From contig QQVD01000057.1 of the NCBI GenBank assembly GCA_003388555.1, forward strand, positions 1 to 43,191: 43,191 bases of DNA, written 5' to 3'. The position numbers were made by a program, and so were the translations under genes. Under the pieces are notes generated by a model. The model was not told the DNA's origin. It did not search any database and saw only the letters and a list, made by a program, of their open reading frames with translations. Shown here piece by piece: positions 4,523-15,410 of the stretch (positions are counted from its first letter, which is position 1; each line of letters begins with the position of its first letter). Origin of the DNA: Acidobacteriota bacterium. GTDB taxonomy: Bacteria > Acidobacteriota > Thermoanaerobaculia > Multivoradales > Multivoraceae.

Positions 4523-6337
<1,815 letters not shown>

Positions 6338-6357
6338 GAAGCCGAGGCGAGCCCGCG

Positions 6358-7113
6358 GTGACGAGCGATTCCAGCCCTTCCGACGCCAGGCCCGAGGACC
6401 GCGACGAGGCGGCGGCGCGCCAGCTGGAGGCGCTCGAGGAGCGCCTCGGTCACCGCTGGTCGGATCGCTCCCTGCTCGAGCGTGCCGTGACCCACCGCTC
6501 GGCCGCCCACGAGCTCGGGGCGGCCGACAACGAGCGACTCGAGTTCCTCGGCGACTCGGTGCTCGGTCTGGTCGCCGCGGCGTGGCTGCTCGAGCGCTTT
6601 CCGGACTTTCCCGAGGGGCGACTGGCGCGCCGCAAGAGCTTCCTGGTGTCGCAGCAGAGCCTGGTCGGCTGGGCCGAGGAGCTGGGTCTGGCGGCCGTGC
6701 TGCGGCTGGGGGTCGGGGAAGAGCGCTCGGGCGGCAGGCACAAGCCGGCACTGCTCGCCGACACCTTCGAGGCGTTGCTCGGCGCCCTGTACCTCGACGC
6801 GGGGCTGTCGACCGTCGAACGGCTGCTGCGACCACTGCTCGACGCGCAGCTCGAACGACGGCCGCAGCTGGCGCACCAGGACGTCAAGACGCTCCTGCAG
6901 GAGCTGGTGCAGGGCCGCGGTGAGTCGCTGCCCGAGTACCGCGTCGTCGCCGAGGAGGGGCCGTCGCACGATCGGCGCTTCCGGGTCTCGGCCCGCTGTG
7001 GCGGCTTCGAGGCGATCGGCGAAGGGCGCAGCAAGAAGGCGGCCGAGCGGGCCGCGGCTCTGCGTCTGCTCGAGCTGCTCGAGGCGACTGGCAAGGGATC
7101 GGTGGGTCCGTAA
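6358..7113 (+). CDS. rnc: Ribonuclease III
   Basis: 251 aa. The RNase III signature NERLEFLGDSVLG (residues 58-70) and the second catalytic patch DTFEALLGALYLD are present, followed by a C-terminal double-stranded-RNA-binding domain running from DVKTLLQELVQ to KKAAERAAALRLLELL. It cleaves dsRNA during rRNA and mRNA processing in the cytoplasm. Start chosen at GTG 6358, giving a ~20-residue charged leader before the first helix; the open frame upstream runs into mutL and is out of family. Probably co-transcribed with mutL. Confidence 0.96.
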   Translation: MTSDSSPSDARPEDRDEAAARQLEALEERLGHRWSDRSLLERAVTHRSAAHELGAADNERLEFLGDSVLGLVAAAWLLERFPDFPEGRLARRKSFLVSQQSLVGWAEELGLAAVLRLGVGEERSGGRHKPALLADTFEALLGALYLDAGLSTVERLLRPLLDAQLERRPQLAHQDVKTLLQELVQGRGESLPEYRVVAEEGPSHDRRFRVSARCGGFEAIGEGRSKKAAERAAALRLLELLEATGKGSVGP

Positions 7114-7311
7114 GAATGGGCCCACCGGCGGGCGCCCCGGGCAGCTCCGCCGCGGCGGATCCCCAGTCGATGCGGACCGCACGGATCCCAGTCCATCCCG
7201 AAGCATCCGGCGATGCGGCCGGCCGCCTCCCGTTTCGGGCGCTGGAGTGGCCGTCCGCCCACCAGAGAGTGCGGGGAGGCGACGGCCGCCTCGCGAGCCA
7301 GGAGTGCAGAC

Positions 7312-8679
<1,368 letters not shown>

Positions 8680-8730
8680 GCAACCCATCTGGCTGCGAGC
8701 AGCCGTCGCCGGGATGGAGGAGGAATCGCG

Positions 8731-9726
8731 ATGTGGGCCGTAGCCCCGTACCAGGAGCCGGAGGACGGCAGCCGTCCCGGTGGCGCGGCAACCATCCACC
8801 GCGTCGAGATGGAGGATCCCTCGGCCGGCCCCGGGGAGGTGGTGCTCGAGATCGCCGGCAGCGCCCTGAACCGGGCCGATCTGCTGCAGATGCGCGGCCT
8901 CTACCCGCCGCCGCCCGGCGCCAGCCCGGTGCCGGGCCTGGAGTGCTCGGGCACCGTCGTCGCCGTCGGCGACGGGGTCGACCAGAGCTGGCTCGGTCGT
9001 GAAGTGATGGCCCTGCTCGCCGGTGGCGGGCACGCGACACGGGTCGCGGTGCCGGCGAGCCAGCTGATGGCGGTGCCGGAAGGGCTCGACCTGGTCGAGG
9101 CGGCGGCGCTGCCGGAAGTGGCCCTCACCAGCTGGACGAACCTGGTCTACGAGGGACGCCTGGCGCGCGGTGAGTCGGTGCTGATCTCCGGCGCGGCCTC
9201 CGGCGTCGGCACCTTCGCGGTGCAGATGGCGCGCGACCTCGGAGCCCGCGTCCTCGTCGCCGGCCGCTCGCTCGAGCGTCTCGAGGCGCTGCAGGAGCTC
9301 GGTGCCGACGAATGCCTCGAGCTCGGTGAGGACCTCCCGGAACGGGCGCGTGAGGCGACCGGTGGCGGGGTCGACCTGGTGATCGATCTGGTCGGCGGCG
9401 AGCACTTCCCGAGGCTGCTCGGATGCCTGCGCAGCCGGGGCCGCCTGGTGCTGGTCGGGATCCTCGCCGGCCGATCGTGTGAGGTGGATCTCGGAACGGT
9501 GCTGCGCGGTCGGCTCGAGGTGCGGGGATCGGTTCTGCGCAGCCGATCGCTCGAGGAGAAGGCGGGACTCGTCGCATCGTTCGCCAACTACGCCGAGCCG
9601 CGCTTCGCCAGTGGGGCGCTGCGGCCGGTCATCGACCGCGTCGTGCCGTTCGACGACGTCGCCGACGCCTACGCCGCGATGCAGGCGGGAGGTCTGTTCG
9701 GCAAGCTCGTGCTGCGCATGCGATGA
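8731..9726 (+). CDS. NAD(P)H quinone oxidoreductase, PIG3-type MDR
   Basis: 331 aa, zinc-free medium-chain dehydrogenase/reductase. Visible features are the N-terminal GroES-like fold with ALNRADLLQMRGLYPPPPGA and PGLECSGTV, typical of the PIG3/QorA subgroup, and the cofactor loop GAASGVGTFAVQMA. The structural-zinc cysteines of alcohol dehydrogenases are missing. It likely reduces quinones or enones with NADPH in the cytoplasm. ATG 8731 has a strong GGAGGAGG upstream. It sits between asnS and the isopentenyl phosphate kinase, both on the same strand. Confidence 0.9.
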   Translation: MWAVAPYQEPEDGSRPGGAATIHRVEMEDPSAGPGEVVLEIAGSALNRADLLQMRGLYPPPPGASPVPGLECSGTVVAVGDGVDQSWLGREVMALLAGGGHATRVAVPASQLMAVPEGLDLVEAAALPEVALTSWTNLVYEGRLARGESVLISGAASGVGTFAVQMARDLGARVLVAGRSLERLEALQELGADECLELGEDLPERAREATGGGVDLVIDLVGGEHFPRLLGCLRSRGRLVLVGILAGRSCEVDLGTVLRGRLEVRGSVLRSRSLEEKAGLVASFANYAEPRFASGALRPVIDRVVPFDDVADAYAAMQAGGLFGKLVLRMR

Positions 9727-9799
9727 GCGGGCCGGTCAGCGCGAGCCCGGCGATTGCTGCGGATCGGCCGCGAGCGCCGGCCGTTCGCGGAGCGACCTC

Positions 9800-10666
9800 G
9801 TGAGCCTGCAGTTCGTCAAGCTCGGCGGCAGTCTGATCACCGACAAGACCGGCGAGCAGTCGCTCGAGCGCGCCACGCTGGACCGCCTGGCGGCCGAGGT
9901 GGCGGCGGCGCAGACGGCGTCGCCGACGGCGCTGGTCGTCGGCCACGGCAGCGGCTCGTTCGGGCACGTCGCCGCGGCGCGCACCGCCCTGCGCGCCGCC
10001 GGCGCGGCTTCGCCGGATCGACCGATCGATCGGCCGTCGGCGACCGAGGTCAGCGAGGTCCAGGCCGCGGCGCATCGGTTGCATGCCGAAGTGCTGAAGG
10101 CGTTGCGCGCCGCCGGCGTCGCCGCGATGTCACTGCCTCCGTCCTCCTGGCTGACCCTGCAGGACGGCAAGGTTGCCAACGCTGGTTGCGGCGCGGTGGC
10201 ACAGGCGCTGGAGCTGGGTCTGGTCCCGGTCGTCTGTGGCGACGTCGTGCTCGACTCGGTGCGTGGCGCGGTGATCTGCTCCACCGAGGAGGTGTTCTCC
10301 GTTCTGGTCCGGGGGGGAGGGCTGGCAGGGCGTTTCACCCGTGCGCTGTGGATGGGGCGCACCGATGGTCTGCTCGTCGCCGGCAAGCGGCTTGACCGCA
10401 TCGACGAGACGAACGTCGAGTCGGCGCTGGCGGAGGCTGGCGGTGCCCTCGGCGTCGACGTGACCGGCGGCATGCGGCACCGGGTGGAGACGCTGTGGTC
10501 CCTGGCCGGGGAGGTGGGGGAGTCGTGGATCCTCGACGGAGGTCGGCCGGGAGTGCTCGAGGCGGCGCTCGGCGGTCGGCGTCTGGGCGGCACCTGCGTG
10601 GGGCGGGCCGAGCCGGCCCTGGGGCGACCCCAAGCCGGGCCTCCGCCACCCTTCATGTCTTCTTAA
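9800..10666 (+). CDS. Isopentenyl phosphate kinase
   Basis: 288 aa, amino-acid-kinase fold. The N-terminal KLGGSLITDK and GHGSGSFGH with H56 in the position of the catalytic His are hallmarks separating isopentenyl phosphate kinase from UMP, glutamate or fosfomycin kinases. Downstream are NAGCGAVAQALELGLVPVVCGDVV, DGLL and DVTGGMRHRVE, also family-like. The expected reaction phosphorylates isopentenyl (or dimethylallyl) phosphate to the diphosphate with ATP. GTG 9800 has GGAG 9789-9792 at 7 bases. The C-terminus has a proline-rich tail of ~20 residues. No other mevalonate or MEP pathway gene is in view. Family assignment is strong; the physiological role is open. Confidence 0.88.
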   Translation: MSLQFVKLGGSLITDKTGEQSLERATLDRLAAEVAAAQTASPTALVVGHGSGSFGHVAAARTALRAAGAASPDRPIDRPSATEVSEVQAAAHRLHAEVLKALRAAGVAAMSLPPSSWLTLQDGKVANAGCGAVAQALELGLVPVVCGDVVLDSVRGAVICSTEEVFSVLVRGGGLAGRFTRALWMGRTDGLLVAGKRLDRIDETNVESALAEAGGALGVDVTGGMRHRVETLWSLAGEVGESWILDGGRPGVLEAALGGRRLGGTCVGRAEPALGRPQAGPPPPFMSS

Positions 10667-10674
10667 CTGGCGGA

Positions 10675-10745
10675 GAATGAGGGGTTTAGGCGCTCTTACA
10701 ACTGTGCACAATGAATTGTGCACACCGTTCGTAAGTCCCTCATTC
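10675..10745. repeat. 71-bp nested inverted repeat
   Basis: Three nested arm pairs: GAATGAGGG (10675-10683) with CCCTCATTC (10737-10745); CTTAC (10695-10699) with GTAAG (10731-10735); and a perfect 10-bp core TGTGCACAAT (10703-10712) with ATTGTGCACA (10715-10724) around a 2-base centre. It begins 9 bases after the isopentenyl phosphate kinase stop codon. There is no T-run, so a standard intrinsic terminator is unlikely. Confidence 0.8.
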
Positions 10746-10751
10746 CATTGA

Positions 10752-10786
10752 CCTGCGGAGGATCCGACAGACCCTGGATCCGCAGG
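10752..10786. repeat. Inverted repeat 2 of the gap
   Basis: CCTGCGGAGGATCC (10752-10765) pairs with GGATCCGCAGG (10776-10786) apart from a 3-base GGA insertion in the left arm; 10-base loop. Confidence 0.7.
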
Positions 10787-10788
10787 AT

Positions 10789-10809
10789 TTTCCACAGCTG
10801 CTGCGGAAA
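10789..10809. repeat. Inverted repeat 3 of the gap
   Basis: Near-perfect 21-bp palindrome: TTTCC, CAGC, then GCTG, GGAAA, interrupted by one mismatch pair (10794/10804) and a single central base. Confidence 0.65.
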
Positions 10810-10870
10810 GCGACCGTCGGCTCGGTCGGTGGCGGTGCGAGGGCCGCGCAGAGAACCCGGAAGGTCCGGT

Positions 10871-10897
10871 TTTCGGAGCCTCGGAAGGGCTCCGAAA
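10871..10897. repeat. Inverted repeat 4 of the gap
   Basis: Perfect 10-bp arms TTTCGGAGCC (10871-10880) and GGCTCCGAAA (10888-10897) with a 7-base loop; a stable stem in RNA on either strand. Confidence 0.75.
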
Positions 10898-11017
10898 CAG
10901 GGACCGCGTCGTCCGTTGCCGAGGAGTCTGCGGATGGCCGCGGGTCGGGTGTGAGGACAGCGAGGAGGTGCGACCTGCAGTGCGGTGGAGAGTGTGGTGG
11001 AGATCGCCGCCCCGGTT

Positions 11018-11044
11018 GGAATATCCGGCTCCCTCATCCGTATC
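11018..11044 (+). promoter_or_regulatory. Putative ECF-type promoter upstream of the sigma gene
   Basis: GGAAT (11018-11022), 16 bases, CGTATC (11039-11044). This follows the ECF pattern GGAAC/T - 16-17 bases - CGT, and matches the motif in front of the outer-membrane protein gene (26057-26084). It would give a leader of about 135 bases before the sigma start and suggests autoregulation. Sequence match only. Confidence 0.4.
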
Positions 11045-11185
11045 CTGGGCATGATCCTGGTGATGGAAGGTCCGTGCGCAGGGCGTATCGTTGCAGGGCA
11101 CCATACAGGTGAGCATCGGGAGGGCAGCCGCAGTGCAGTCGACAGGCACAGGGACCGGGTCCGCAACGGCGGAGGGCCGCTGACC

Positions 11186-11884
11186 GTGGGACTCCTCGGG
11201 GCCGGACGCCGGCTGCACGGTGCAGTCGCGAAGACGGCGGAGGCACCGACGACGACGGAGCGGTTCGGGCGGGTGGCGGAGGAGGGCGTCGCAGCCGACG
11301 GTGAGGACGCCCTCCACGCCGAGCTCGTGGCGGGATCGCTGCGCGGCGAGGCGAAGGCTCTCGAGGCGCTCGCGCTGTCGCTGCGCCCGCACGCCTACCG
11401 CCTCGCTCTGCAGCTGCTCGGCAACCACGAGGACGCGCTCGACTGCGCCCAGGAGTCCCTGCTGCGCTTCTTCGCCCACCTCGGCTCATACGACCCGCGT
11501 CAGCCCCTGCTGCCCTGGGTGCGTCGCATCGTGCGCAATCGCGCCATCGACATGCTGCGGCGGCGCCGGGTGCGCAGGGCCGACTCCCTCGACACCTCGG
11601 GACCGGAGGGCGAAGCCATCGAGCTCGTCGATCCCAACGTCGCCGAACCGACCGAGTCGCTCCAGCTGGCGCGGCGCCGCCGCCTGGTGTGGAGCTGTCT
11701 GCAGGAGATGAACCAGACCCAGAAGGAGATCCTGGTGCTGCGTGACTACCAGGACCTCAGCTACCGCGAGATCGCCGACGAGCTGGGGATTCCGACCGGC
11801 ACCGTCATGTCCCGGTTGCACCGCGCCAGGGCCGAGCTGCGGCGCCTGGTCATCGGCGAGCTCGACCAGACCTCCGTCGCCTGA
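11186..11884 (+). CDS. ECF-type RNA polymerase sigma factor
   Basis: 232 aa from GTG 11186; GTG 11273 (203 aa) is an equally possible start and is closer to the family's usual length. Region 2 is seen as YRLALQLLGNHEDALDCAQE, followed by LLPWVRRIVRNRAIDMLRRRR. Region 4 contains LSYREIADELGIPTGTVMSRLHRAR, the DNA-binding helix-turn-helix. An acidic linker sits between them, and no extra C-terminal domain is present. It should direct polymerase to a small regulon, released by the membrane protein encoded 49 bases downstream. An ECF-like motif lies upstream. The ECF subgroup cannot be fixed by eye. Confidence 0.92.
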   Translation: MGLLGAGRRLHGAVAKTAEAPTTTERFGRVAEEGVAADGEDALHAELVAGSLRGEAKALEALALSLRPHAYRLALQLLGNHEDALDCAQESLLRFFAHLGSYDPRQPLLPWVRRIVRNRAIDMLRRRRVRRADSLDTSGPEGEAIELVDPNVAEPTESLQLARRRRLVWSCLQEMNQTQKEILVLRDYQDLSYREIADELGIPTGTVMSRLHRARAELRRLVIGELDQTSVA

Positions 11885-13900: not shown

Positions 13901-15067
13901 CTATTCCCCGTCGCTCCGTGGTGGAGACGACGGTCCACCTTCGCTGCTCCCGGGAGGACCGCCGCGACGGTCGCCGACGGTAGGTTCCTCGGCGCGCACC
14001 AGGCCCGCCTCCCGCCGGCCGCTGGCGTCGGCGAGGGCTCGCCAGAGACCGGTTTCCGGCGGCGAGACGAGGATCGTCCCGGCGGCGGTCAGCGCCACCG
14101 CGCCGCCTCCGGGCAGCTCTTCGACGACGCTTTCGACGGCGCTTCCCGGTTCGGTGTGCCGCAGCCGCTCGACGATGGCGTGCGCCGCCATGCGGCGGAC
14201 CAGGCTGCCGTCCGGGCCGAGCACGACGGCGGCTCCGGAGCGGTTGTCGGCGAACAGCCCTGCGCCCGGCAGCGCGACGTCGGAGAAGGCGTCGGCCTCG
14301 CGCAGCGCGGCGCCGCCGGTCGAGACCCCGACCGCCAGATTGCCGTACCGATCGAGGGCGACGACACCGACCGATCCGGGCACGCCGGGGACCGCATCGA
14401 CCTCGCCCCGTCGCCTGGCCGAGCGCAGCTCCAGCAGTCGTGGCGGCGTGGTGAAGAAGTTCTGCGGCGCCTTCTCGACTCCCAGCTCGCCTGCCGCCTG
14501 GTCGGCCAGCGCGGCGACACGGATCGTGCCTCCTCCCTGCTCGAGCAGTCGCCTGGCCAGCACGATCGGGTTGCGCACGTTGCGGGTGCCGAAGACGACG
14601 CCCATCGCGTGCGAGCGGCCGTCGATCAACGCCGCATCGAGACGGTGGGTGCCGCGGTCGGTGAAGGCCGCGCCCCGCCCGGCGTTGAACGACGGTTCGT
14701 CCTCCAGGCGGCGCAGCAGCTCCGCGACCACGTCGACCGCTGCGGATCCAGCGGTCAGTCGCTGGATCCCGGCGTCGAGGACGACCTGCAGGGCCTCGAG
14801 CCGTGCGTTGGCAGCGGCGGAGCCCGCGAGCGAAGTCTCGGGGCCGCCATGCACGACGAGAGCCCAGTCTAAGCGCTCGCCGTCCGCGGCCCCGGGCGAG
14901 TCGGAGCGAGGCTCGGCGGCGCCAGCGGTCCGATCGCCGCCGGCGGGCCGGCCTTCGACGGTGGCGTCGACGTCGTCGCCGCTCTCGGTCGACGGGCAGG
15001 CGAGCAGCACCAGCGCCACCGCGAACGCCGCCGAGCAGGCCCGGAGCGTCCGCGTCGCTGGCGGCAT
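13901..15067 (-). CDS. Isoaspartyl peptidase/asparaginase-2-fold lipoprotein, divergent active site
   Basis: 388 aa. Lipoprotein signal with lipobox LLAC (C24), then a ~40-residue acidic/Gly linker. The Ntn-hydrolase domain starts at WALVVHGGPE and shows FNAGRGAAFTDRG, LDAALIDG, RNVRNPIVLAR, GNLAVGVSTGG and LPGAGLFADN. The autocleavage and nucleophile site, normally GTVG, is G231-S232-VG, so Thr is replaced by Ser. The substrate-binding GRVGDSP loop is lost (ADAFSDVAL), as is the TGxGE motif. It may be a self-processing enzyme of altered specificity or inactive. ATG 15067 is the only start that opens the lipoprotein signal. Membrane-anchored outside the cytoplasm by inference. Confidence 0.82.
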   Translation of the reverse strand: MPPATRTLRACSAAFAVALVLLACPSTESGDDVDATVEGRPAGGDRTAGAAEPRSDSPGAADGERLDWALVVHGGPETSLAGSAAANARLEALQVVLDAGIQRLTAGSAAVDVVAELLRRLEDEPSFNAGRGAAFTDRGTHRLDAALIDGRSHAMGVVFGTRNVRNPIVLARRLLEQGGGTIRVAALADQAAGELGVEKAPQNFFTTPPRLLELRSARRRGEVDAVPGVPGSVGVVALDRYGNLAVGVSTGGAALREADAFSDVALPGAGLFADNRSGAAVVLGPDGSLVRRMAAHAIVERLRHTEPGSAVESVVEELPGGGAVALTAAGTILVSPPETGLWRALADASGRREAGLVRAEEPTVGDRRGGPPGSSEGGPSSPPRSDGE

Positions 15068-15330
15068 GAGGTGGGCGGCCTGCACCGCTTGCCCGATGGA
15101 ATGCACGAAGAGCACGAGGGGAGTGGGGGACACCCGCGCCCAGCCTGCCTGGCGTCGGCGGGCGCCGACTCGGGGCCGTGGGTTGCGATGTCCCGCTCGG
15201 CCGAGACGTGGCGTCGATGGGCGGCGTTGTGGGCGAAGCGGCTGCCGGTCCCAGCCGCGGTGGCGACGGAGTGCGGGCAGTGCGATTCCCACCCGCGTCT
15301 CGGATCTCAGGCGATGGCGGCCGCAGGCTA

Positions 15331-15410
15331 CCACCGTCATGCACCGTCATGCACCGTCATGCACCGTCGTGCACCGTCATGCACCGTCGCGCACCGTCGC
15401 GCACGGTCGC
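15331..15410. repeat. Eight-copy 10-bp tandem repeat (GCACCGTCAT)
   Basis: Eight consecutive units with no spacers. Four read xCACCGTCAT; the later ones drift at positions 8-10 (CGT, CGC) and the last is GCACGGTCGC. Period 10 puts every copy on the same face of the helix. It is located ~70 bp upstream of the symporter operon and ~265 bp upstream of the asparaginase-like gene. Confidence 0.92.

What the first reader, a model, noticed from the sequence alone, without database searches (positions are those of the whole stretch)
9800..10666. Bacterial isopentenyl phosphate kinase
KLGGSLITDK and GHGSGSFGH with the catalytic His point to isopentenyl phosphate kinase, known mainly from archaea, plants and a few bacteria such as some Chloroflexi. 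No mevalonate-pathway gene is in view. It may salvage isoprenoid monophosphates or complete an alternative mevalonate route.
Basis: partly seen in the sequence, partly recalled or inferred. Interest (0 to 1): 0.65.

Follow-up and report, generated by a model that had tools for sequence, protein, structure and literature searches.

The report
Relocated kinase completing alternative mevalonate route
An acidobacterium that appears to lack the usual bacterial route to isoprenoids carries the kinase for the last step of an alternative mevalonate pathway, known before mainly from archaea and Chloroflexi; in its relatives the gene usually sits inside the pathway's operon, but here it lies elsewhere in the genome.

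Summary
Window 9800-10666 (+) encodes a 288-aa isopentenyl phosphate kinase (IPK): NCBIfam NF040647 is above cut-off, all 11 published conserved IPK residues are present, and the model matches solved IPKs best. The genome is an Acidobacteriota, probably Thermoanaerobaculia.

IspH and IspG were not found. Contig C14 carries isomerase-HMGR-mevalonate kinase-decarboxylase-squalene/phytoene synthase; no phosphomevalonate kinase (PMK) was detected. In most relatives compared, IPK follows the decarboxylase; here and in G152 that slot is empty and IPK lies behind asnS.

In 396 genomes of the phylum, all 25 with IPK have this decarboxylase (22 directly upstream). The 7 other genomes with it lack IPK and have a PMK-like gene beside it. 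At two specificity positions, IPK-linked decarboxylases read Ala (24 of 24 readable) and His (25 of 25); PMK-linked ones read Lys and Met (7 of 7).

So this is a phylum-level occurrence of a known pathway type (Chloroflexi/haloarchaea), not a new enzyme. Fifteen of the 25 also have IspH; one congener shows MEP decay. No activity was measured.

The parts
9800..10666 (+). isopentenyl phosphate kinase (IPK) gene, GTG start, 288 aa
   Evidence: NF040647 above cut-off; PDB 3ll9 best by sequence; AlphaFold2 model pLDDT 89.7, best structural match 3k4o Z 30.7
9789..9792 (+). GGAG, likely ribosome-binding site, 7 bases before GTG
   Evidence: read directly from the sequence; not tested
9818..9847 (+). 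K7 to K16: K-L-G-G and the second Lys (M. jannaschii K6, K15)
   Evidence: alignment columns
9944..9967 (+). H49 to H56, HGSGSFGH; H56 aligns with His60 of M. jannaschii IPK, the active-site His
   Evidence: essential active-site His from PMC3857490, its numbering H60 from the same paper's Table 2
10280..10288 (+). S161-T162-E163 (STE) where four archaeal rows of the set read SGD
   Evidence: 102 of 107 aligned IPK rows read STE, 4 SGD, 1 SSE
10457..10474 (+). DVTGGM (D220-M225; M. jannaschii D213, T215, G216)
8731..9726 (+). quinone oxidoreductase (PIG3 family) directly upstream, gap 73 bases; context only
   Evidence: TIGR02824; syntenic in G152 C9
7213..8679 (+). asparagine-tRNA ligase asnS; context only, marks the location
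   Evidence: TIGR00457/NF003037; syntenic in G152 C9
4523..7113 (+). mutL (4523-6337) and rnc (5980-7113; start codons as listed mechanically, so the overlap may not be real); context only, same order in G152 C9

Best explanation
The gene encodes a true isopentenyl phosphate kinase that performs the last step to isopentenyl diphosphate in an alternative mevalonate pathway of this Acidobacteriota: HMG-CoA -> mevalonate (HMGR) -> mevalonate 5-phosphate (MVK) -> isopentenyl phosphate (a decarboxylase acting on the monophosphate, MPD) -> isopentenyl diphosphate (this IPK, with ATP; H56, K7, K16) -> DMAPP (type 2 isomerase), feeding the squalene and hopanoid genes beside the C14 genes. The order IDI2-HMGR-MVK-MPD-IPK-SQS is kept in seven of the twelve IPK genomes compared; in this genome and in G152 the IPK slot is empty and the gene sits behind mutL-rnc-asnS-qor. 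Shown here by sequence: gene identity, pathway inventory, undetected MEP end enzymes, co-occurrence, gene order, diagnostic residues. Inferred: catalytic activities, flux, and the direction of the move (out of the operon).
For: IPK identity. IspH and IspG not found in the own genome (98.76% complete), while the same searches ring in 10 and 9 of 14 control genomes. Own contig C14 carries IDI2, HMGR, an MVK-like gene, the decarboxylase and SQS_PSY, plus SHC, HpnH and HpnA; HMG-CoA synthase on C25. GHMP_kinases_N finds 4 genes in the genome: the MVK-like gene, the decarboxylase, and two that I read from their sequences as galactokinase and homoserine kinase. All 25 IPK genomes have a TIGR01240 decarboxylase over cut-off; the 7 other over-cut-off genomes lack IPK. 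In those 7 a PMK-like match lies beside the decarboxylase (best E per genome 3.1e-31 to 4.6e-10); in the 25 IPK genomes matches are absent (11) or weak (14, best E 3.2e-6 or worse), and the weak ones on the decarboxylase's contig (G059, G119, G334) lie on the MVK gene. IPK directly follows the decarboxylase in 22 of 25 genomes. The Lys21 equivalent is Ala in 24 of 24 readable IPK-linked copies (one truncated) and Lys in 7 of 7 PMK-linked; a second site is His in 25 of 25 against Met in 7 of 7. Lacking the DMD Lys and keeping the PMD His is described for Chloroflexota enzymes (PMC11052028 passage). Best PDB match of the decarboxylase is 6n0x, 229.5 bits; the best outside that protein is 6xr5, 169.3; PMC9254496 names 6n0x as Anaerolinea phosphomevalonate decarboxylase with mevalonate 5-phosphate. 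Own IPK groups with its family's IPKs, which fits a move rather than a new acquisition.
Against: No activity was measured. The decarboxylase passes the TIGR01240 (MDD) cut-off and fails NF040704 (115 against 475 bits). Table 4 of PMC3857490 is only partly met: Ala rather than Leu/Met/Tyr at the Lys site, no Arg at position 27, Ser192 as in MDD (AthPMD 6n0x also keeps Ser139 and Ser192). The PMC11052028 passage takes the no-Lys/His pattern as a sign of dual PMD/DMD specificity, so the pattern may not mean monophosphate only; that my columns are the ones meant there is my inference. L042, a Thermoanaerobaculia record, reads Thr, not Ala, at the Lys site beside an IPK. The MVK-like protein is below its TIGR00549 cut-off (124 against 163 bits) and HMGR just below TIGR00533 (434 against 441.8), though over PF00368's. 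IPK co-occurs with IspH in 15 of 25 genomes, so it is not tied to MEP loss. PMK absence rests on TIGR01220, which passed its cut-off in no genome searched, controls included, on the GHMP inventory, and on PF04275, whose controls were silent. The own genome is a 74-contig draft.
Confidence: 0.9

Rival explanations
1. The IPK only salvages isoprenoid monophosphates (isopentenyl, dimethylallyl, longer prenyl phosphates) while isopentenyl diphosphate is made by another complete route.
For: Solved IPKs bind several monophosphates (titles: DMAP, benzyl monophosphate and others); 15 of 25 IPK genomes have IspH; in the own genome the gene is outside the operon.
Against: IspG, IspH and PMK were not detected in the own genome; IPK directly follows the decarboxylase in 22 of the phylum's 25 IPK genomes and none of the 25 lacks the decarboxylase; decarboxylase residues fit the monophosphate substrate.
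Confidence: 0.06
2. The protein is a fosfomycin kinase (FomA-like) or another amino acid kinase rather than an IPK.
For: Same superfamily; FomA is the nearest non-IPK fold, Z 26.7, tied with the two T. acidophilum IPK entries at 26.9 and 26.8; FomA (34.3 bits) even outscores T. acidophilum IPK (29 bits) by sequence.
Against: FomA model 32 bits against a cut-off of 550, IPK model above its cut-off; six other IPK chain sequences 68 to 102 bits; mevalonate operon context in relatives; ArgB, two aspartokinase types, ProB and PyrH are separate genes.
Confidence: 0.02
3. The decarboxylase is a classical diphosphate enzyme, or has dual specificity, and an undetected kinase makes mevalonate diphosphate, so the classical route runs and IPK is an accessory that re-phosphorylates isopentenyl phosphate, as proposed for plants (recalled).
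For: TIGR01240 over cut-off; the PMC11052028 passage reports additional PMD activity of Chloroflexota DMD and suggests dual specificity for the same residue pattern.
Against: All 7 PMK-linked decarboxylases of the phylum keep Lys and Met, all readable IPK-linked ones in the 25 genomes have Ala and His; no PMK-like match in the own genome; R. castenholzii MPD showed no detectable activity on the diphosphate (PMC3857490 Table 3).
Confidence: 0.08

Closest known systems
Alternative mevalonate pathway of Roseiflexus castenholzii (Chloroflexi): MPD + IPK (Dellas et al. 2013, PMC3857490)
   Same: Decarboxylase and IPK without an obvious PMK; homologous enzymes; a Roseiflexus sp. IPK (L077) shares the STE motif
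   Different: Different phylum; IPKs form a separate group with Gemmatimonadales and Schekmanbacteria; decarboxylase has Ala at the Lys21 site and Ser at 139 and 192; in relatives one operon IDI2-HMGR-MVK-MPD-IPK-SQS, here IPK elsewhere
Haloarchaea-type mevalonate pathway (PMD + IPK; described in PMC9254496, passages)
   Same: Same inferred order of reactions: decarboxylation before the second phosphorylation
   Different: Decarboxylase scores far below NF040704 (115 against 475 bits); no haloarchaeal IPK was compared
Classical bacterial mevalonate pathway (MVK, PMK, MDD), as in 7 other Acidobacteriota genomes examined
   Same: HMGR, GHMP kinase, decarboxylase of the same superfamily
   Different: Those genomes have a PMK-like match beside the decarboxylase, no IPK match, and Lys/Met at the two sites
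FomA fosfomycin kinase
   Same: Amino acid kinase fold, Z 26.7
   Different: Family model 32 bits against 133.9 for IPK; mevalonate gene context in relatives

Membership tests
Isopentenyl phosphate kinase (IPK) | passes the curated IPK model NF040647 | tested here: met
   133.9 bits, cut-off 120; two operon-borne relatives 141.4 and 156.4
Isopentenyl phosphate kinase (IPK) | active-site His (M. jannaschii His60) and the other 10 highly conserved residues of PMC3857490 Table 2 | tested here: met
   11 of 11 in this protein; 104 of 107 aligned rows have all 11
Isopentenyl phosphate kinase (IPK) | fold closest to solved IPKs | tested here: met
   3k4o Z 30.7, rmsd 2.2, 243 aligned; FomA 3d41 Z 26.7; two T. 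acidophilum IPK entries (26.9, 26.8) tie with FomA
Isopentenyl phosphate kinase (IPK) | phylogeny among IPKs, apart from UMP, acetylglutamate, glutamate and aspartate kinases | tested here: inconclusive
   the 19 IPK rows form one side of a branch against the genome's five other amino acid kinases, support only 56/66; FomA not in the tree
Isopentenyl phosphate kinase (IPK) | ATP-dependent phosphorylation of isopentenyl phosphate | not testable with these tools
   needs an assay
Alternative (MPD/IPK) mevalonate pathway | HMGR, MVK and IPK present | tested here: met
   the MVK-like protein is below its equivalog cut-off (124 against 163 bits)
Alternative (MPD/IPK) mevalonate pathway | no phosphomevalonate kinase | tested here: inconclusive
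   no TIGR01220 match in the own genome and no spare GHMP gene, but TIGR01220 passed its cut-off nowhere and the PF04275 search had silent controls
Alternative (MPD/IPK) mevalonate pathway | decarboxylase lacks the DMD Lys and has the PMD His | tested here: met
   own: Ala and His; pattern from PMC11052028, which links it to possible dual specificity; column identity inferred
Phosphomevalonate decarboxylase MvaD (NF040704) | passes the NF040704 cut-off | tested here: not met
   115.3 bits, cut-off 475; so not filed under that model
FomA fosfomycin kinase | passes the NF000338 cut-off | tested here: not met
   32 bits, cut-off 550
MEP pathway | IspG and IspH present in the own genome | tested here: not met
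   no match, with ringing controls; draft genome

The most novel reading that the evidence does not exclude
The MPD-IPK form of the mevalonate pathway is a second isoprenoid system of Acidobacteriota (also seen in Gemmatimonadales and Schekmanbacteria loci), carried as an operon IDI2-HMGR-MVK-MPD-IPK-SQS that can be passed on, with its own decarboxylase solution (Lys to Ala plus His), running beside the MEP pathway in many genomes and replacing it in others: a natural series from both pathways, through a broken ispG and missing ispH (G184), to mevalonate only, as in this genome, where IPK has even left the operon.
Probability: 0.6. Interest if true: 0.6.

Novelty: new member of a known kind. 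Interest (0 to 1): 0.45.

Why it matters
In the passages I read, the decarboxylate-first mevalonate route is described for haloarchaea, some other archaea and Chloroflexota. Here it appears as a coherent operon in Acidobacteriota, with an internal control: related genomes with a PMK-like gene instead of IPK have different residues in the decarboxylase. If right, genes that models label diphosphomevalonate decarboxylase in such genomes should be read as enzymes able to use the monophosphate, and close relatives with both isoprenoid pathways, or with one being lost, become test cases for why bacteria swap them. In this genome the mevalonate genes on C14 alone look incomplete, because the last enzyme is on another contig.

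Tried and rejected
Rejected: UMP kinase or another amino acid kinase (separate PyrH, ArgB, ProB and two aspartokinase genes); FomA. Rejected: that STE instead of SGD marks a defective or new enzyme. It is the majority state in my rows (102 of 107, including a Roseiflexus sp. IPK), and the R. castenholzii enzyme is active (PMC3857490 section 7), though I did not see that protein's own letters. A paper search on the residue's role gave nothing useful by its listing. Rejected: recent horizontal acquisition at the window locus; the gene groups with its family, although own and G152 branches are long (about 1 change per column) and several forks are weak.

Led nowhere: the promoter/terminator scan of 7000-11200 found no promoter-like site and one terminator-like site on the other strand, as many as in shuffles. 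The PF04275 search had silent controls. My first scan of the squalene synthase used a wrong frame and found nothing; the right frame gives SQS_PSY. A first residue count missed the 7 PMK-linked decarboxylases through a too strict pattern, and G374 was then read at wrong coordinates; both corrected. Paper searches: one search gave one paper, whose mentions are in its reference list only; one search gave 5 papers, that same one and four judged irrelevant from the listing; one search gave none; one search listed 15 of 114, of which I read passages of three (PMC13001223, PMC11052028, PMC3857490) and of PMC9254496. A term search for 'acidobacteri' found nothing in PMC13001223 and PMC11052028. PMC6359773 passages describe a screen of IPKs that included bacterial ones, not named there. 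The library lacks most subscription journals, so absence from print is not claimed.

Rows dropped: the tree left out 6 duplicate loci and 22 randomly chosen Chloroflexi rows (79 of 107 used). In one search a further 25 genomes had weak, below-cut-off TIGR01240 matches that I did not count. In one search G222's decarboxylase is cut by its contig end. In one search, 20 of 80 loci hold a decarboxylase match within the fetched flank; the other 60 are uninformative or lack it nearby, and at several loci my pattern could not read the His site.

Full report
The gene. Window 9800-10666 (+) is an open frame with a GTG start, a GGAG seven bases upstream and a TAA stop; it encodes 288 residues. NCBIfam's isopentenyl phosphate kinase model NF040647 matches residues 6-267 with 133.9 bits against a cut-off of 120; the FomA model gives 32 bits against 550. 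Pfam gives AA_kinase, 56.7 bits. The best PDB sequence match is 3ll9 (E 4.7e-28). All 11 residues that Dellas et al. 2013 list as highly conserved in IPK (PMC3857490, passages seen) are present. An AlphaFold2 model from the window protein and 29 relatives (pLDDT 89.7, pTM 0.87) aligns best to solved IPKs (3k4o Z 30.7, rmsd 2.2, 243 residues), with FomA lower (3d41 Z 26.7) and acetylglutamate kinases at about 23 and below; the two T. acidophilum IPK entries tie with FomA. The genome's other five AA_kinase genes are ArgB, two aspartokinase types, ProB and PyrH.

The organism. The window is part of a 6.8-Mb, 74-contig genome of 98.76% completeness. Genomes placed in the same family by the phylum search have contigs of the same length as public records titled Thermoanaerobaculia or Holophagales (G184 and OX638294.1, G270 and JAJDUI010000037.1, G089 and VXVC01000007.1). 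The phylum is therefore Acidobacteriota; the class is probably Thermoanaerobaculia, by record titles only.

The pathway in this genome. IspH was not found (rings in 10 of 14 controls) and IspG was not found (rings in 9 of 14). HMG-CoA synthase lies on C25, HMG-CoA reductases on C14 and C20. On C14 the order is SHC, HpnH, HpnA, an unnamed stretch, type 2 IPP isomerase, HMGR, a mevalonate-kinase-like gene, a decarboxylase and a squalene/phytoene synthase. Four genes match GHMP_kinases_N: the mevalonate-kinase-like gene, the decarboxylase, and two that I read from their sequences as galactokinase and homoserine kinase. No PMK match was found (TIGR01220). IPK is thus the enzyme that would close the route if the decarboxylase acts on the monophosphate.

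The decarboxylase. It passes TIGR01240 (221.7 bits, cut-off 171.35) and not NF040704 (115.3 against 475). Its best PDB match is 6n0x (229.5 bits; the best outside that protein is 6xr5, 169.3). PMC9254496 describes 6n0x as phosphomevalonate decarboxylase of Anaerolinea thermophila with mevalonate 5-phosphate bound (passages). A PMC11052028 passage states that Chloroflexota enzymes lack the conserved Lys of DMD and retain the conserved His of PMD, and takes this as a sign of dual specificity. The own enzyme reads Ala and His at the sites that I take to be these. The 6n0x and 6n0z sequences differ at just these two sites in the printed alignments (Asn/His against Lys/Met), which looks like a designed specificity variant (inference). 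Other sites of Table 4 in PMC3857490 fit MPD less well: no Arg at position 27, Ser at 139 and 192, though 6n0x also has both Ser. R. castenholzii MPD had no detectable activity on the diphosphate.

The phylum as a natural control. Three searches covered 396 genomes of the phylum under the same handles. IPK: 25 of 396, own included. TIGR01240 over cut-off: 32 of 396, namely all 25 IPK genomes plus 7; 25 more have weak matches below it. IspH: 370 of 396. PMK was sought in those 32. In the 7 without IPK a PMK-like match lies beside the decarboxylase, best E per genome 3.1e-31 to 4.6e-10. In the 25 with IPK, 11 have no match and 14 have weak ones (best 3.2e-6); those on the decarboxylase's contig, in G059, G119 and G334, lie on the MVK gene, and I did not identify the rest. 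TIGR01220 passed its cut-off in none of the 32 and in no control, so I rely on position and relative strength; in G276 the gene scores 116 bits for PMK against 86 for mevalonate kinase. The Lys21 equivalent is Ala in 24 of 24 readable IPK-linked decarboxylases (one of 25 is truncated there) and Lys in 7 of 7 PMK-linked; the second site is His in 25 of 25 and Met in 7 of 7. IPK lies directly downstream of the decarboxylase, same strand, in 22 of 25 genomes (89-305 bases between matched stretches); the exceptions are G000 (own), G152 and G334. Fisher tests give very small values, but the genomes are not independent: 14 of the 25 belong to genus g2.

Operon and relocation. I compared regions of 12 IPK genomes, the own genome included. 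Seven (G015, G238, G246, G368, G001, G059, G119) show IDI2-HMGR-MVK-decarboxylase-IPK-SQS. G184 and G126 (genus g2) show the same order up to IPK with extra spacing and no SQS hit in the fetched stretch. In G334 IPK and SQS sit together on another contig. The own genome and G152 have IDI2-HMGR-MVK-decarboxylase-SQS with the IPK slot empty. The window locus is syntenic with G152 contig C9: mutL, rnc, asnS, quinone oxidoreductase, IPK, sigma factor. Own IPK groups with G152 and genus g2 (SH-aLRT 84) and, with one g2 row, at 93/95, so the simplest account is one move out of the operon before own and G152 split. The six-gene order is also seen in two Gemmatimonadales loci (L050, L073) and MVK-decarboxylase-IPK in a Schekmanbacteria locus (L056), all with Ala at the Lys site; L042, a Thermoanaerobaculia record, has Thr there, the readable Chloroflexi loci Asn, a Beckwithbacteria locus Arg. 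The IPKs of the Acidobacteriota, Gemmatimonadales and Schekmanbacteria rows fall on one side of a branch (SH-aLRT 100, no bootstrap).

Two pathways side by side. Fifteen of the 25 IPK genomes also have IspH, 13 of them in genus g2; all 15 also have IspG. In genus g2, G184 (one contig) has no IspH match, and its ispG has lost about 470 bases relative to G342 while the flanks are about 98% identical. This suggests, but does not prove, that the operon can take over when the MEP pathway decays.

The STE motif. Where M. jannaschii and three other archaeal rows read SGD (M. jannaschii 158-160), this protein reads STE, as do 102 of 107 rows, some archaeal ones included. In this biased sample it is the common state rather than a sign of a broken enzyme.

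What is shown and what is not. Shown by sequence: IPK identity, pathway inventory, pairing, residues, position relative to the operon. Inferred: activities, flux, direction and time of the move. Novelty: the pathway type is known (PMC3857490). The searches showed me no report of it in Acidobacteriota, but the library lacks most subscription papers, and of the papers I saw passages or single sections, none in full.

Noticed in passing
L182 (G184:C1:1429500-1434500) against L183 (G342:C5:26000-31000): ispG of G184 has an internal deletion of about 470 bases in otherwise about 98%-identical surroundings, and ispH was not found in that single-contig genome: MEP decay beside an MPD-IPK gene set.
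   Followed up: partly
G001, G017, G059, G015, G119: HMG-CoA synthase (PF01154) was not found although HMGR, decarboxylase and IPK are present (MVK seen in four of the five; G017 not looked at); G001, G017 and G059 also lack IspG and IspH matches. HMG-CoA may come from another route, or the synthase is divergent.
   Followed up: no
G386 (same order, 8.0 Mb, 94% complete): No IspH, IspG, IPK or decarboxylase match, yet HMG-CoA synthase and two HMGRs: its isoprenoid route is unexplained, possibly an incomplete assembly.
   Followed up: no
own genome C20:15032-16198 (L041): A second HMG-CoA reductase outside the C14 cluster, 299.5 bits for TIGR00533, below its cut-off of 441.8.
   Followed up: no
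L036:9986-11803 (own C14, between HpnA and IDI2): A long open frame between the hopanoid genes and the isomerase had no NCBIfam match; it may be the wrong frame.
   Followed up: no
window 13904-15337 (-): Protein with a C-terminal match to beta-aspartyl-peptidase below the model's cut-off (137 against 567 bits); a counterpart of 36% identity lies in the syntenic G152 stretch.
   Followed up: no
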